The position numbers were made by a program, and so were the translations under genes. A stretch of 64,000 nt of DNA, taken from Rhodospirillaceae bacterium (GTDB taxonomy: Bacteria; Pseudomonadota; Alphaproteobacteria; Rhodospirillales; Rhodospirillaceae). Of the stretch, positions 49,352 to 54,428 are shown piece by piece (the first letter of the stretch is position 1; the number at the start of each line of letters is the position of its first letter). The notes under the pieces are model-generated. The model saw only the letters and a list, made by a program, of their open reading frames with translations, was not told where the DNA came from and did no database searches. The stretch lies in assembly GCA_040219235.1 (NCBI GenBank), contig JAVJSV010000011.1, forward strand, positions 992,001-1,056,000, in the 5' to 3' direction.

Positions 49352-49426
49352 GGCTTTTTGTGTCCCACGTTCACAATGGTGTTTCAGTTTTCAGGCACGG
49401 TCATAGCAAAAAAGCGGGCGGGGTGC

Positions 49427-50910
49427 ATGGTCTCAGTCGTCGCACCTCGGCGACCTTCGGCAACGGGCGCGTTAAAACTTACGACTACGAAGCAGATTCT
49501 GCCCTTAAGTCCATCACCCACCAAAACTTAATCGAGACGTCTCCTGGCGAGGTGCACGATGCAGTGTGGGTCTTCAATTATTCGCCCGCCAATCAAGTGT
49601 CATCGAAGTCCCTGCCGATCGATTTTATTTATAGAACCGCCAGCGCGGTGGATGATGACTATGTCGTCAACGGCCTCAACCAGTATACTGCCATCAAAGG
49701 CCAAGCCGTTACCTACGATGCCAACGGCAACCTCATCACCTCCGGCATCTGGGCGTATACCTACGATGCAGAAAACCGCCTCGTTACTGCCACCAATGGG
49801 CTAATTACGGCCACCTATGTTTATGGCCCGCTGGATCGGCGTATTGCCAAAACGGTCACCACCTCTGGCGGCAACCCAGTTGAAACCCGTTATCTCTATG
49901 CGGGTAGTGATGTCATTGCAGAGTTTACGGGTGGTGGCACATTGCTGCGGCAATATGTCCATGGCCCGCAGGTGGATGAGCCGGTGGTCATGCTTGATCC
50001 CACCCAGCCTGTCGCCGATGAACAGGTGCAGTATTATCATGCCGACCATGCGGGCACCGTGGTGGCCACCTCAGACAATGTGGGCAACCTGGCGGAGAAA
50101 TACTCTTACTCGTCCTTTGGGGAAGTAGGCATAGAGGGGGTGGAAGGCAACCCCTATCGCTTCGCGGGCCGACGTCTGGACCCGGAAACAGGCCTCTATT
50201 TCTACCGTGCACGGTACTATAACGCGTCCCTCGGACGCTTCCTGCAGATCGACCCCATCGGCTATCAAGACAGCATGGGATTGTATCAATATGCCCTGAA
50301 TGATCCGCTTAATAGGATTGATCCCAGCGGAACACTAGTCATATGGGTAGAAGCTGATGCAATTGCAAACCTTGGCGTAACACCTGTTGAGGTCAATGGT
50401 TCGACGGGCTTTTACTTAAGTATACCTACGTCAAGAGGGCAGAAATTTAGTTTTGGGCCATATGTTGCTGGCGGTGCTGGTCTGGGCGTGCACGACGGTG
50501 TAGCTGCAGATTTTGGTTTTCTACAGGGCGATGTGCGAGATTTCCAAGGTCCTTCAGTTGAAGTCTCTGGTGATTTCGGAATATTTGGTTTTGGCGCGCA
50601 GCTTCCTCTAAATTCAGATGGTAAACCTATTGGAGACAAATTAGGATTTTCGGCAGGGTTTGGCCCGCAGATTGGTGGGTCGATATTGGTGAAGAATACT
50701 GAAGTGTTCCCGTGGGCAGGCTTTGACCCATCTACCGAAAGCAATAGTACAGACAGTGGCAGTTCTAATAGTGAAGGCACAGCAGGCAATAGTAGTGTTT
50801 CGTCTACGGTGAATGTAGGAAATGTAATGCAAGGTGCAAATGATAGGCGTGACGCAAACCAAATTTCTGGCTCAGTTTGTATCCGTTTGCGCGCAGCGCT
50901 TTGTTTTTAG
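49427..50910 (+). pseudogene. 5'-truncated RHS-repeat gene with variable C-terminal tip
   Basis: The RHS reading frame starts abruptly at 49427 ('LSRRTSATFGNGRVKTYDYE') and lacks the thousands of bases that normally precede it; any ATG/GTG upstream encodes non-RHS sequence. YD-repeats ('YDANGNLITSGIWAYTYDAE'), then the core-end 'RYYNASLGRFLQIDPIGYQD', 'YQYALNDPLNRIDPSG' mark the tip junction. The ~190-residue tip is Gly/Ser/Asn-rich ('FGFGAQLPLNSDGKPIGDKL'), AT-rich and unrecognised. Probably not expressed as a secreted toxin without its N-terminus. Confidence 0.8.
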
Positions 50911-51271: not shown

Positions 51272-51803
51272 GCCGGGGGCTCCAGTCTCCGGGTGATCTT
51301 CGAGCATGACGCCCTCAACCGCATGTCTGAAATCTGCGAGGCGGATACGCCTGCCGAACATACAGCCATTGTCTGTACCGATCCGGACTCTTACGTAAGC
51401 TATCTCTACGATGGTCTCAGTCGTCGCACCTCGGCGACCTTCGGCAATGGGCGCGTTAAAACTTACGACTACGAAGCAGATTCTGCCCTTAAGTCCATCA
51501 CCCATCAAAACTTGATTGAGACCTCCCCGGGTGAAACGCACGACGCCGTGTGGGCCTTCAATTACACACCGGCCAATCAGGTCTCTTCTAAGTCCCTGCC
51601 GTTGGATTTTATCTACAGAACCGCCAGCGCGGTGGATGATGACTATGTCGTCAACGGCCTCAACCAGTATACCGCCATCAAAGGCCAAGCCGTTACCTAC
51701 GATGCCAATGGCAATCTCACAACGTCTGGCATCTGGGCGTATACCTACGATGCAGAAAACCGCCTGATTACCGCCACCTATGTTTATGGCCCGTTAGATC
51801 GGC
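51272..51803 (+). pseudogene. Orphan RHS core fragment (second copy)
   Basis: Carries RHS sequence 'VIFEHDALNRMSEICEADTP' and 'YLYDGLSRRTSATFGNG', then repeats the first copy: 51411-51803 is nearly identical to 49427-49840, minus 21 bp. It diverges right after 'YVYGPLDR' into AT-rich sequence without RHS features. No start codon with a ribosome binding site and no tip. Typical of a displaced Rhs core fragment left after recombination. Confidence 0.8.
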
Positions 51804-51871
51804 CATTTTTCGTTTGCCTAACTTATTCAAATAAACTGTTTTGTAATTTCCAGCATAAGAGAATTATAACA

Positions 51872-51879
51872 ATTAAATT
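51872..51879. repeat. Target site duplication, left (ATTAAATT)
   Basis: ATTAAATT directly precedes the left end of the IS1595-type element and recurs at 53915-53922 directly after its right end. Eight bp is the usual duplication length for this family. Confidence 0.88.
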
Positions 51880-51907
51880 CAGGTTTATCCCCTTGAAACA
51901 CGGTGGG
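51880..51907 (+). repeat. Left terminal inverted repeat of the IS1595-type element
   Basis: Shares TTATCCCCTTGA, CACGGT and GG at equal spacing with the right end; the outermost five bases differ. Confidence 0.85.
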
Positions 51908-51943
51908 ATTCACTTTCTACTTCCATGGGTGTAAGGTGTGGGA

Positions 51944-52882
51944 ATGTCAAAAACCGCTGCAATTGTACGCTATGACGGTCCGGCGCTAGCCGGACACTCT
52001 ATGGATGTGGCCGATTTGGCTCCAGCCCTTCTGGCATTGTCGGGACTCGTCAAAACCGCCAACAGAAAATTCAACGGCGGTCGGTCGTCGGTAAAAGTTT
52101 TGGTGAACGTCGATACTGAACAACAGTGCTTTCAGTTTTATATTGAGATTGCACAGACCCTTCTCCAGCAGGCCGCCCTTCTTGTTCAAGACGAACGCGT
52201 TGCAACAGCCAAAGAAATTGCCGAATGGATTGGTTTAATCGGTGGGACCGCCTTAAGTGGCGGCGGCATTTTTCAACTTTATAAGTGGCTTGCTAAGAAC
52301 AAGGTTTCATCCCTGGAGCAGCTTGAAATTCAGGAGGGGGACGACAACGTAATCCTAAAGAATGTCAACAATAGCGGATCAATTACCGTCAATAAGAACA
52401 CGTACCTGATGATGGGTGAGCCGTCCGTACTTAAGAATGTGAAATCGGTCATTAAACCGCTAACAGGAACGGGCTACGAGAAACTTCAATTTGAACATGA
52501 CGATGTCGTGAGTGAAGAAATATCGGTGGCCGAAGGAATTGAAATGGATGGAATGGAGTTCGGGCTTCAAGAGCCGCAAGAGCGTGTGAATAAAACTACT
52601 TTCCCGGCTAAAGTTAAGGTTAAGAAACCGGACCTTATCGGAGATTCAAAATGGTCTGTAATCTTCGATAAGACTATAGATGTTAAGGTCGAGGATGCTG
52701 AATGGTTGGATCGCTTCCATGCCAATGAGGTGCAGGTGCCTGCTGGCAGCTACCTTTCTGTTGACCTAAGAATTGAGATACGATTGGACGACAAGAACGA
52801 CCCGGTAGGGGATCCGAGTTATTTTGTATCTACCGTTCATGATGTTATTCCGCCCGCTAAGCAGGATGATTTGTTCGACTAA
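51944..52882 (+). CDS. Unrecognised passenger protein of the IS1595-type element
   Basis: 312 aa from ATG 51944 (a GTG 6 bp upstream is possible). Starts 'MSKTAAIVRYDGPALAGHSM' followed by 'DVADLAPALLALSGLVKTAN', which reads as a conserved family start. Residues ~95-118 ('EWIGLIGGTALSGGGIFQLY') are hydrophobic and glycine-rich and may enter or touch a membrane. The C-terminal half is beta-rich and charged ('KWSVIFDKTIDVKVEDAEWL'). No enzymatic motif is visible. Its stop overlaps the next start (TAATG). It lies inside the element boundaries, so it moves with it. Function unknown; a defence or stress role would be speculation. Confidence 0.75.
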   Translation: MSKTAAIVRYDGPALAGHSMDVADLAPALLALSGLVKTANRKFNGGRSSVKVLVNVDTEQQCFQFYIEIAQTLLQQAALLVQDERVATAKEIAEWIGLIGGTALSGGGIFQLYKWLAKNKVSSLEQLEIQEGDDNVILKNVNNSGSITVNKNTYLMMGEPSVLKNVKSVIKPLTGTGYEKLQFEHDDVVSEEISVAEGIEMDGMEFGLQEPQERVNKTTFPAKVKVKKPDLIGDSKWSVIFDKTIDVKVEDAEWLDRFHANEVQVPAGSYLSVDLRIEIRLDDKNDPVGDPSYFVSTVHDVIPPAKQDDLFD

Positions 52883-53100
52883 TGCCACGAATTACGCTCA
52901 AAAAGGCCCTGAAAGAGGGTAAACTCGACCAGTTCATCTCCGAACACGACAAGGACGGTGATGGAGACGTTGACGAGTTCGACGCTGCTATTTCTTCAAT
53001 GGTTCAAAAGTCGAAAGCAACTCAGGGAACATCGTCTCAGGACACTTCCGGCGATTGTGACGAAACTCAAACTCGTCCGCGTAAAGATCAAGGTACTTAG
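52882..53100 (+). CDS. EF-hand miniprotein, second passenger gene
   Basis: 72 aa. Contains one canonical EF-hand calcium loop, Asp23-x-Asp25-x-Asp27-Gly28-x-Val30-Asp31-x-x-Asp34, between short helices ('LKEGKLDQFISEH' and 'EFDAAISSMVQK'). Translationally coupled to the 312 aa gene through TAATG, and its last 113 bp run antisense to the transposase end. The tail (45-72) is Ser/Thr/Gln-rich and may be encoded by transposase-derived sequence. Single EF-hand proteins normally need to pair, so a dimer or a partner is likely. Confidence 0.65.
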   Translation: MPRITLKKALKEGKLDQFISEHDKDGDGDVDEFDAAISSMVQKSKATQGTSSQDTSGDCDETQTRPRKDQGT

Positions 53101-53863
53101 ACGAGACGTGGACGTGAGTGCCACGGATGCTGTTTTTCAGCCTTGCCCAATATGACTCCATTGAATTGGTAGTCACGTCACCACGAGCGTATTCCTTGCG
53201 GCCATGGTCAACCGTTTCGTGTTTATAGCCACGCTTAGACAGACTCTTGTAGGCGTGTGCTTCGTCTGTGTTGATGGTTGAACCCTTAACCACATTAGCC
53301 TCAATAATCGGCAAAAGCGTCTTGGCTTGTGAGTTAGGGACGACCTGGGTTTGAACGTCACCGTCGCGCTGTACCATGCCAAGAACGATTGCTTTGTTAC
53401 CCACGACCTTGAAACCGCCGCCAATGCCCTTTCTACGGCCACTAAACATGCTCTCGTCGATCTCGACTGTGCCGGATAACGGTTCGTCCCCATCCACCCT
53501 GGACATATGCTCACGGATAACCTTAGCCATACGCCAAGCCGCTTTGTAGGTAACGCCCAACTGGCGCTCTAGTTCCTTGGCAGCAACACCATGGCGGGAC
53601 GTGGTAAACATCCAGATCGCATAGAACCAAAGCTGTAGGGACGTGCGCGAGCGGTGAAACGGCGTATCTACGCAGGGATATTCATGATGCCCGCACCACT
53701 GGCAGGAATAAGCCCGCCGATTAGTGAGCGGGTACCACTTTCCTTGTTTCTCACACTTGGGGCAAACGTAATCAGAACCATAACGGGCCTCGAATAGATG
53801 ATCTAAACAGGCTTGATCACTGGGGAACTGCTTGAAAAAGTCTCTAAGGGTCTGTGTTTTCAT
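52988..53863 (-). CDS. IS1595-family (ISXO2-like) transposase
   Basis: 291 aa. N-terminal zinc ribbon Cys34-x2-Cys37 ... Cys54-x2-Cys57, then an IS1595 DDE-type core: Asp136 ('VEIDESMFSGRRKG'), Asp200 ('INTDEAHAYKSL') and the 'NSMESYWARLKNSIRGTH' motif with Glu236, followed by 'EFEFRHNRR'. Intact, without frameshift, so the element may be active. Its end runs antisense into the EF-hand gene. Confidence 0.95.
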   Translation of the reverse strand: MKTQTLRDFFKQFPSDQACLDHLFEARYGSDYVCPKCEKQGKWYPLTNRRAYSCQWCGHHEYPCVDTPFHRSRTSLQLWFYAIWMFTTSRHGVAAKELERQLGVTYKAAWRMAKVIREHMSRVDGDEPLSGTVEIDESMFSGRRKGIGGGFKVVGNKAIVLGMVQRDGDVQTQVVPNSQAKTLLPIIEANVVKGSTINTDEAHAYKSLSKRGYKHETVDHGRKEYARGDVTTNSMESYWARLKNSIRGTHVHVSSKYLDLYADEFEFRHNRRKCPETMFPELLSTFEPLKK

Positions 53864-53886
53864 GATGGTTAGATATTACAAAAACA

Positions 53887-53914
53887 CCTACCGTGCGTCA
53901 AGGGGATAATCACC
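53887..53914 (-). repeat. Right terminal inverted repeat of the IS1595-type element
   Basis: Reverse strand reads GGTGATTATCCCCTTGACGC then ACGGTAGG, matching the left end in 19 of about 28 positions. Confidence 0.85.
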
Positions 53915-53922
53915 ATTAAATT
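53915..53922. repeat. Target site duplication, right (ATTAAATT)
   Basis: Exact copy of 51872-51879 at the outer edge of the right inverted repeat. Confidence 0.88.
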
Positions 53923-53965
53923 TGTTGATAGCAAGATCTTTTTCCATCAGGCCAGAAAAATCTTA

Positions 53966-54075
53966 GTGCATGGGCTCGTTCCAAGGGGTGCAGCTAAGGC
54001 GCTTCCATGGGCTCGTTTCCCCGATCATACGTGCATGGGCTCGTTTGAACTGAACCAGTCGTGCATGGGCTCGTT
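53966..54075. repeat. Four dispersed copies of CATGGGCTCGTT
   Basis: The word CATGGGCTCGTT occurs at 53969, 54006, 54034 and 54064 (preceded by GTG in three of them). Distances between starts are 37, 28 and 30 bp, and the sequence between copies differs. No gene is visible in this stretch. Confidence 0.85.
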
Positions 54076-54136
54076 CCACCGTCGAGCCCCACAACAAAAA
54101 ATCTCGTTCCACCGTCGAGCCCCACAACAAAAAATC
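54071..54136. repeat. Tandem 33-bp direct repeat
   Basis: The unit beginning TCGTTCCACCGTCGAGCCCC occupies 54071-54103 and is repeated exactly at 54104-54136; its first copy begins inside the last CATGGGCTCGTT word. The remaining ~60 bp up to the flgH terminator hold nothing recognisable. Confidence 0.9.
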
Positions 54137-54196
54137 TCAAACCTCGACTCAATCCTTAAAAAGCCAGATATCGACCCAAGATCGGGTCTCAAAAGC

Positions 54197-54230
54197 ACAA
54201 AAAAAGACCGGTGGGAACATGTCCCACCGG
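54197..54230 (-). terminator. Intrinsic terminator of the flgFGAH unit
   Basis: On the minus strand CCGGTGGGAC-ATG-TTCCCACCGG followed by TCTTTTTTTGTG. It lies 199 bp beyond the flgH stop and marks the right edge of the accessory region. Confidence 0.85.
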
Positions 54231-54428
54231 CGAGTTTGCTTCTGCGCCGCAACAGGCCATGACAGTTGCTACGGCAGGTGTGATCGTTCGGAGTCGTCAA
54301 GACCTAAAATCTGTCAGAGTGGACCGATCTGCATCACACCGGAAGGATCTCGGTGCGTGCCTGGGGGGCGACGGAGGCGGAACATTCTGTTCGCGCTGGT
54401 GTTGAACCCGTCGCCGCACCCTGGCGTG

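What the first reader, a model, noticed from the sequence alone, without database searches (positions are those of the whole stretch)
51880..53914. IS1595-type element carrying two passenger genes
The element boundaries can be read directly: inverted ends sharing TTATCCCCTTGA/CACGGT and an exact 8-bp duplication ATTAAATT on both sides. Inside are an intact ISXO2-like transposase and, on the opposite strand, two coupled genes that are not needed for transposition. IS1595-family members with passengers are known in outline, but the cargo here was not recognised. A mobile unit delivering an unknown two-gene module is a good candidate for an undescribed system.
Basis: partly seen in the sequence, partly recalled or inferred. 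Interest (0 to 1): 0.85.

Follow-up and report, generated by a model that had tools for sequence, protein, structure and literature searches.

The report
Jumping gene shuttling candidate phage-defence cargo
A small bacterial jumping gene of the IS1595 family carries, besides its own transposase and a conserved small gene, one exchangeable cargo gene; in this genome and in relatives the cargo often resembles candidate anti-phage defence genes, so the element looks like a tiny shuttle that swaps and spreads such genes.

Summary
In detail: window 51880-53914 is an intact 2,035-bp IS1595-family element with inverted ends (21/30), an exact 8-bp duplication and an intact transposase. The interpretation changes. 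(1) The 312-aa cargo belongs to recorded families: NCBIfam NF053583 (LAPAL) and PADLOC candidate defence family PDC-S42. (2) The small "EF-hand" gene is not cargo: homologues at the same place occur in 27 of 33 related elements. (3) Cargo is exchangeable: a second copy in this genome has a 99% identical transposase and the same small gene but another, very divergent LAPAL protein. Elsewhere the slot holds LAPAL, DUF7946/7947, proteases, a methylase and others; at least 12 of 40 cargo ORFs match PADLOC models, against 2 to about 7 of 80 flanking ORFs (visible rows only). (4) One cargo-bearing element occurs as two identical 2,434-bp copies with different duplications. (5) Both copies here sit in the centre of a palindrome heading a host repeat; intact paralogues serve as empty sites. 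Anti-phage function is inferred, not shown. IS with passengers are known; I rate this a new variant.

The parts
51872..51879 (.). left copy of the 8-bp target duplication ATTAAATT
   Evidence: sequence
53915..53922 (.). right copy of the 8-bp target duplication ATTAAATT
   Evidence: sequence
51880..53914 (.). complete IS1595-family element, 2,035 bp
51880..51909 (+). cargo-side terminal inverted repeat (30 bp compared)
   Evidence: 21 of 30 positions match the other end
53885..53914 (-). transposase-side terminal inverted repeat; carries the -35 hexamer of a putative transposase promoter (TTGACG-17-TAATAT, 53901 to 53873)
   Evidence: a -35 match of 5/6 or better at this end in 32 of 33 elements, at the cargo end in 16 of 33 (no shuffle control; promoter-like sites in the region are at chance level)
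52988..53863 (-). IS1595 (ISXO2-like) transposase, 291 aa, intact
   Evidence: PF12762, PF12760, NF033547
51944..52882 (+). exchangeable cargo gene: LAPAL-family protein, 312 aa (NF053583; PADLOC PDC-S42; phrog_3243)
   Evidence: structure model
51867..51879 (.). left arm and centre of the target palindrome TAACAA-TTAAAT-TTGTTG, interrupted by the insertion
53923..53927 (.). remaining right arm of the target palindrome

Best explanation
This is a transporter insertion sequence of the IS1595 family: a single-transposase unit that moves an exchangeable cargo gene lying between its fixed module (transposase plus conserved small gene) and the far inverted repeat. Shown by sequence: transposase, ends and 8-bp duplication; a second copy in the same genome with the same transposase and small gene but another cargo; identical cargo-bearing copies at two sites in another genome; insertion of both local copies into the centre of a host palindrome. 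Inferred: the cargo acts as a superinfection-exclusion or anti-phage protein. I think an OB-like C-terminal domain most likely binds a nucleic acid of the invader (or a host nucleic-acid or ribosome target) and the rest of the protein turns this into growth arrest; this mechanism is a guess of about 0.25. In the window the small gene is probably translated from the cargo message by coupling and, I infer, either tunes the cargo or links cargo expression to control of the transposase, because its message runs antisense into the transposase 3' end.
For: Family: NF053583 189 bits, cut-off 60; PDC-S42 1e-46. PDCs were proposed by 'guilt by embedding' and most await tests (PMC12988326, 12 of 18 passages seen; PDC-S42 not named in them). 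In all three annotated phages found, LAPAL adjoins the integrase, once also next to a 'putative superinfection immunity protein'. Exchange: window and L008 share 1,036 bp at 95% over transposase and small gene, but only 26 bp inside the cargo-side end; transposases differ by 39 synonymous and 3 non-synonymous changes, the small gene outside the overlap by 10 and 2. The L008 cargo matches NF053583 at 3.5e-15 (56.2 bits, just under the cut-off) and PDC-S42 at 3.9e-10. Movement: L091 and L092, 2,434 bp, 0 differences, duplications TCGAGAAA and TAGAGTTA. Small gene in 27 of 33 elements, leave-one-out 13 of 13. PADLOC: at least 12 of 40 cargo ORFs at 1e-4, against 2 to about 7 of 80 sampled flanking ORFs judged from 25 of 39 families shown. 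LAPAL profile at E <= 1e-4: 4 of 43 cargo ORFs, 0 of 157 flanking ORFs; two of the four, window and L037, are in the profile itself, so L200 and L008 are the independent ones.
Against: I read nothing that shows anti-phage activity of LAPAL/PDC-S42, and NCBIfam calls it a putative phage structural protein. In L106 a LAPAL gene lies between ORFs I read as tail genes. Clustering near integrases was not significant: of 40 viral records 25 had an integrase, 9 within 5 kb, 6.15 expected, p 0.14. Up to 28 of 40 cargo ORFs have no PADLOC match in the rows shown, and 14 families of the flank control were not shown. No PDB fold at E <= 0.001; the SSB match is E 0.0073, TM 0.19 by query and 0.50 by target, and the aligned range is not given, so its placing on the C-terminus is my reading of the strand order. 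Cargo and small gene abut or overlap within 10 bases in 12 of 16 elements where both were listed, but are about 190-470 bases apart in L008, L096, L100 and L101, so coupling is not general. The small-gene model is poor (pLDDT 64.5). The hydrophobic Gly-rich segment, the most hydrophobic 15-mer in 41 of 56 family members, is not so in the window protein.
Confidence: 0.6

Rival explanations
1. The cargo is neutral or selfish accessory DNA: the IS picks up any short gene between small gene and far end, and defence-like families appear because they are common on mobile DNA in general.
For: Cargo is very mixed and up to 28 of 40 cargo ORFs show no PADLOC match in the rows given. Some flanking ORFs match PADLOC too.
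Against: The same families recur in different elements: LAPAL in 4; DUF7946/7947 in L075 and L087 with a shortened relative in L094; related trypsin-like proteases in L088 and L099; one gene pair in L091/L092, L095 and L201. LAPAL is rare in the class (6 of 385 genomes including the window's own) yet sits in both copies here.
Confidence: 0.2
2. LAPAL is a phage structural or morphogenesis protein picked up from a prophage, with no role in the present host.
For: NCBIfam name; L106; nearest rows to the window protein in the tree are viral-contig proteins L131-L133 (support 96/71); in an Ewingella plasmid a LAPAL gene lies a few kb from a tail fibre gene and SOS-type genes.
Against: In the three annotated phages it adjoins the integrase, not the structural operon. 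On the Vibrio plasmid pAQU2 no phage gene is listed in the 14.5 kb shown. The four IS-borne copies do not form one clade against the six bacterial ones, which suggests more than one uptake.
Confidence: 0.15
3. Cargo plus small gene is a toxin-antitoxin or addiction pair that stabilises the IS, with the small gene as a general antitoxin.
For: Abutting or overlapping frames in 12 of 16 elements; selection on the small gene; some cargos are TA-like: IrrE-type peptidase in L090 and a Cas2-like protein in L105 (VapD likeness is recalled).
Against: One antitoxin for unrelated cargos would be unusual; in 4 of 16 elements, L008 among them, the frames are far apart; six of 33 elements lack a detectable small gene.
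Confidence: 0.1

Closest known systems
Transporter IS (tIS): IS with passenger genes, discussed with the IS1595 family (Siguier et al. 2009, seen only as a citation; 'transporter ISs' in passages of PMC3129680, tIS in passages of PMC7986276 and PMC12888890)
   Same: one transposase, short inverted ends, target duplication, passenger gene inside
   Different: here a tight transposase clade shares a conserved antisense small gene next to an exchangeable cargo slot rich in defence-like families; my searches found no description of that
LAPAL family NF053583 / PADLOC PDC-S42 / phrog_3243
   Same: the 312-aa cargo matches all three profiles
   Different: carried by an insertion sequence; the relatives I looked at lie on phage-like contigs, plasmids or bacterial contigs where the transposase query found no IS1595
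DUF7946-DUF7947 proteins (PF25678, PF25679)
   Same: cargo of sibling elements L075 and L087; 63-column profile match of the N-terminus to LAPAL (E 0.00056, hhalign probability 30%); L087 also matches PDC-S42 at 4.5e-5
   Different: homology to LAPAL is weak and not established
ISPa75 with fosZ (IS66 family tIS; PMC12888890, passages)
   Same: IS carrying a captured passenger gene between its ends
   Different: another IS family with three IS ORFs; a resistance gene as cargo
Sbash gp30/gp31 and lambda RexAB prophage exclusion (PMC6426596, passages)
   Same: lysogeny-expressed gene pair that excludes other phages; a model for what a LAPAL accessory gene may do
   Different: no relation tested; the window cargo has no Pfam match at E <= 1, so no DUF4747

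Membership tests
IS1595 family | DDE_Tnp_IS1595 catalytic domain with N-terminal zinc ribbon | tested here: met
   PF12762 140.3 bits (cut-off 27), PF12760 39.1 bits (cut-off 25.4), NF033547 201.1 bits (cut-off 75)
IS1595 family | terminal inverted repeats and 8-bp target duplication (8 bp as a family mark is recalled) | tested here: met
   IR 21/30, TSD 8/8; 29 of 33 elements 8/8
IS1595 family | assignment to a named ISfinder subgroup | not tested
   ISfinder sequences not on hand; plasmid transposases annotated as named elements (ISAcr1, ISCsp2, IS1595) are 28-31% identical in the rows listed
transporter IS (tIS) | gene not needed for transposition enclosed by the ends and moved with the IS | tested here: met
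   cargo between ends; identical cargo-bearing copies at two sites in another genome; dispensability inferred from cargo exchange
LAPAL family NF053583 | profile score above the curated cut-off | tested here: met
   189 bits, cut-off 60; the L008 cargo has 56.2 bits, just below
PADLOC PDC-S42 | profile match | tested here: met
   1e-46 over residues 1-310
PADLOC PDC-S42 | embedding of family members within known defence systems | not tested
   the window copy lies in an IS beside an RHS-like fragment and flagellar genes; embedding of other members was not examined
anti-phage defence system | reduces phage infection | not testable with these tools
   needs an experiment
EF-hand protein | EF-hand domain above cut-off and conserved calcium loop | tested here: not met
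   14 bits, cut-off 25.4; loop absent in most of the aligned small-gene products, by eye
phage structural protein (NCBIfam wording) | encoded in the structural module of phages | tested here: inconclusive
   beside the integrase in 3 of 3 annotated phages; between tail-type ORFs in L106

The most novel reading that the evidence does not exclude
A clade of IS1595 elements is a dedicated shuttle for compact anti-phage genes: a fixed module (transposase, antisense small gene) with an interchangeable cargo slot, in which the small protein is a common partner or regulator of unrelated defence effectors, and whose transposase in this host homes to the palindromic head of a dispersed repeat family. 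(Lowered from 0.30 on checking, because cargo and small gene are far apart in L008 and three other elements.)
Probability: 0.27. Interest if true: 0.85.

Novelty: new variant of a known kind. Interest (0 to 1): 0.62.

Why it matters
Defence genes are known to travel on prophages, plasmids and large islands (established knowledge). A roughly 2-kb single-transposase element with a swappable slot would be a very small vehicle, able to place such a gene without a phage or an island, and it gives a simple way to find new candidates: read the cargo slot of every element of this clade. It also gives a testable context for LAPAL/PDC-S42 and DUF7946/7947, for which I found no known function.

Tried and rejected
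EF-hand/dockerin reading of the small gene: sub-threshold hits only, loop not conserved. The 312-aa protein alone found no relatives in viral contigs, plasmids or phages; other members or alignments did. LAPAL as a lysogeny-module gene: seen in 3 annotated phages, not significant over 25 records. Structure: no PDB sequence match at E <= 1, no PDB fold at E <= 0.001; three BFVD hits at E <= 0.001 are uncharacterised phage proteins (one of them a DUF6575 domain protein), and the Pipsqueaks one could not be tied to a tested gene from the passages read. A membrane-pore reading of the Gly-rich segment is left open. An orthologous empty site could not be shown because the RHS-like stretch is absent beside flgH in relatives. 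A general hairpin preference of the clade: flank symmetry above background (mean 4.83 against 3.68 of 14 pairs, p 0.00025), but mostly from the three nearest bases, so palindrome targeting is claimed only for this host. Rfam: no match at gathering threshold in 51500-54400. Paper searches: 'PDC-S42' 0 papers; 'IS1595'+'anti-phage'+'cargo' 0; 'DUF7946' 0; 'IS1595'+'passenger gene' 15 (listing; three of them, PMC7986276, PMC12888890 and PMC3129680, then seen in passages); listings; PMC12561309, PMC6426596, PMC12629846 and PMC12988326 seen in passages. No paper was read whole, and the library lacks most subscription papers and bioRxiv.
Full report
What is there. The window holds a complete IS1595-family element at 51880-53914, flanked by ATTAAATT on both sides. 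The ends match at 21 of 30 positions. The transposase is intact and matches the family's catalytic and zinc-ribbon models. On the other strand lie a 312-aa gene and a 72-aa gene, overlapping by one base; the last 113 bases of the small gene lie antisense over the transposase 3' end.

What the cargo is. The 312-aa protein matches NCBIfam NF053583 (LAPAL, 'putative phage structural protein', 1.2e-55), PADLOC PDC-S42 (1e-46) and phrog_3243 (9.5e-33), and nothing in Pfam at E <= 1. PDCs are candidates found by 'guilt by embedding', most awaiting experiments (PMC12988326, passages; PDC-S42 itself is not named there). The family is widespread on viral contigs: two alignment-based scans gave 15 and 55 encoding loci, with overlap and near-identical copies. 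In the three annotated phages found, the gene adjoins the integrase: Listeria vB_LmoS_188 (also next to a putative superinfection immunity gene), Lactobacillus A2 and Bifidobacterium PMBT6. Of 40 viral records searched, 25 had an integrase match, and closeness to it was not significant (9 within 5 kb, 6.15 expected, p 0.14). In L106 the gene lies between ORFs I read as tail genes, and on an Ewingella plasmid a tail fibre gene lies a few kb away. An AlphaFold model from 56 sequences is good (pLDDT 89.3, pTM 0.75). The best PDB matches are the mitochondrial SSB Rim1 (E 0.0073) and a translation initiation factor (E 0.016); none is below 0.001. The order of strands and helix in residues 214-302 is that of an OB fold, by my reading; the output does not give the aligned range. 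This suggests, but does not show, nucleic-acid binding.

A second copy with another cargo. In the same genome, contig C8, lies a 2,265-bp element (L008) with its own 8-bp duplication, a 99% identical transposase and the same small gene. DNA similarity covers 1,036 bp from the small gene to the transposase-side end, and 40 bp at the far end, of which 26 are inside the element and the rest in the target; between them the cargo differs. The L008 cargo is a 283-aa protein that is still a remote LAPAL relative (NF053583 3.5e-15, under the cut-off; PDC-S42 3.9e-10). The transposases differ by 39 synonymous and 3 non-synonymous changes, the small gene outside the overlap by 10 and 2: both have diverged for some time under selection, so this is not a fresh duplication. 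In L008 the cargo ends 266 bases from the small gene, with an antisense ORF between, so tight coupling as in the window is not kept there.

The clade. A search of 385 genomes of the class found the transposase in 105 at E <= 0.001. The best matches are at about 46-57% identity; below that most full-length matches have less than 40%. A phylum-wide sample of 398 genomes gave 5 with E <= 1e-60, all of the same class, the window's own among them. Named relatives are in a gammaproteobacterial, a verrucomicrobial and a Rhodospirillales assembly and on plasmids of Sulfitobacter and a Geminicoccaceae bacterium. Of 40 loci examined, the window included, boundaries were found for 33, and 29 have an 8/8 duplication; L022, L078, L083, L086, L089, L102 and L103 were dropped because no boundary was found. 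Duplication identity entered the choice of boundaries, and for L087 I took the second-ranked candidate, so the number is not independent. Sizes run from 1.2 to 4.6 kb.

Small gene. A profile of 13 small-gene products finds a match at E <= 0.001 in 27 of 33 elements; 13 of 13 training elements are found again when left out. The matches at that level all lie antisense at the transposase end. It is missing from L020, L084, L085, L088, L097 and L099. In L088 and L099 the protease cargo runs on into the same place and ends in a similar tail, which I read as a fusion by eye; the profile does not support it (E 8.9 and 0.59). Loci with more distant transposases (L022, L023, L072-L074) gave no match at E <= 1, nor did the partial L070 and L071. 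In 12 of 16 elements where both genes were listed, cargo and small gene abut or overlap within 10 bases; in L008, L096, L100 and L101 they are about 190-470 bases apart.

Cargo. The slot holds LAPAL proteins in 4 elements (window, L008, L037 which is the same locus as L021, and L200), DUF7946/7947 proteins in L075 and L087 with a shortened relative in L094, related trypsin-like proteases in L088 and L099 (PDC-S45), an N6-methylase with specificity domain (L084, and L085 at 96%), an IrrE-like peptidase (L090), a Cas2-like protein (L105), a recurring gene pair (L091/L092, L095, L201; two members match PDC-M24B weakly) and many unknowns, several with hydrophobic stretches by eye. Against PADLOC at 1e-4 at least 12 of 40 cargo ORFs match (L085 and L092 left out as duplicates), counted from the 25 families shown of 46. 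Of 80 flanking ORFs sampled from 150, between 2 and about 7 match, judged from the 25 families shown of 39. The output gives no per-protein total, so the contrast is approximate; the unseen rows could raise either side, and flanks of mobile elements are no neutral background. A LAPAL profile hits 4 of 43 cargo ORFs and 0 of 157 flanking ORFs at E <= 1e-4; the window and L037 proteins are part of that profile, so L200 and L008 are the independent hits. A tree of 64 LAPAL proteins does not group the four IS-borne ones as one clade against six bacterial ones (3 changes, forced by supported branches); 54 viral rows were not counted, three changes may be one gain and two losses, and the L008 branch is very long.

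Movement with cargo. In genome G473 two copies, L091 and L092, are identical over all 2,434 bp and have different duplications (TCGAGAAA, TAGAGTTA). This is the best evidence that cargo moves with the element; an assembly artefact is not excluded.

Promoter. At the transposase end a -35-like hexamer (5/6 or better) lies inside the inverted repeat in 32 of 33 elements, mostly at the same position; at the cargo end in 16 of 33 (no shuffle control). For the window the promoter-like site is 53901-53873, although such sites in the region are no more frequent than chance (2 found, 2.1 expected).

Target. Joined flanks of the window insertion align at 78% over 204 columns to a stretch of contig C4 without an element; 19 of the aligned bases lie left of the junction. 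That stretch is a palindrome TAACAA-N6-TTGTTA followed about 36-50 bases on by a dispersed repeat (GTGCATGGGCTCGTT...), which has about 20 other matches in the genome. The palindrome pattern occurs at 8 places (reversed control pattern 0), six of them within about 120 bases of repeat matches; of ten repeat loci fetched, four carry the exact palindrome. Both elements of this genome lie in the centre of slightly different copies: TAACAA-TTAAAT-TTGTTG (window) and TAACAA-ATTAAA-TTGTAA (L008). Over 29 elements only a weak preference is visible (C, A before; T, G after the 8 bp). None of 6 same-genus genomes has the cargo; FlgH was found in 2 of these 6, and there none of the element's DNA lies beside it.

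How it most likely works. The transposase, perhaps from a promoter in its own end, moves the unit into AT-rich, here palindromic, sites. The cargo is expressed towards the transposase; its message can continue through the small gene into the antisense of the transposase 3' end, which could damp transposition while the cargo is made. Cargo is replaced between the far repeat and the start of the small gene. I infer that the cargo's benefit is protection against phages: LAPAL is a recorded candidate defence family, an accessory gene of temperate phages, and its neighbours in the same slot are often defence-like. No experiment supports this yet.

Novelty. IS with passenger genes are known and were discussed with the IS1595 family (Siguier et al. 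2009, seen only as a citation; 'transporter ISs' in PMC3129680, passages). In the library searched no paper holds IS1595, anti-phage and cargo together, none names PDC-S42 and none DUF7946. The parts I found no description of are the conserved small gene, the exchangeable slot rich in defence-like families, and the palindromic repeat as target in this host.

Noticed in passing
window 53966-54083: Dispersed repeat of four GTGCATGGGCTCGTT units (spacing 37, 28, 30), in several copies headed by the palindrome TAACAA-N6-TTGTTA; about 20 other matches in the genome and a 72-bp match at 76% near flgH in a same-genus genome (L197). No Rfam match at gathering threshold. Function unknown.
   Followed up: partly
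window 49360-50910 and 51293-51934: Two near-repeats of an RHS/YD-repeat type gene (name recalled), the second cut short just before the element; no DNA match beside flgH in G001, G003 and G011.
   Followed up: no
L088, L099: Trypsin-like protease cargos (PDC-S45) whose C-terminal tail resembles the small gene product by eye; the profile does not confirm it.
   Followed up: no
L084, L085: 96% identical 787-aa methylase/specificity cargos in elements of two genomes, with a small gene in the usual place that the profile does not recognise.
   Followed up: no
L020, 5746-6111: A second, partial IS1595 transposase in the same verrucomicrobial contig.
   Followed up: no
L008:3438-3683 (-): 82-aa ORF with two hydrophobic stretches, antisense between cargo and small gene of the second copy; no family above cut-off.
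   Followed up: no
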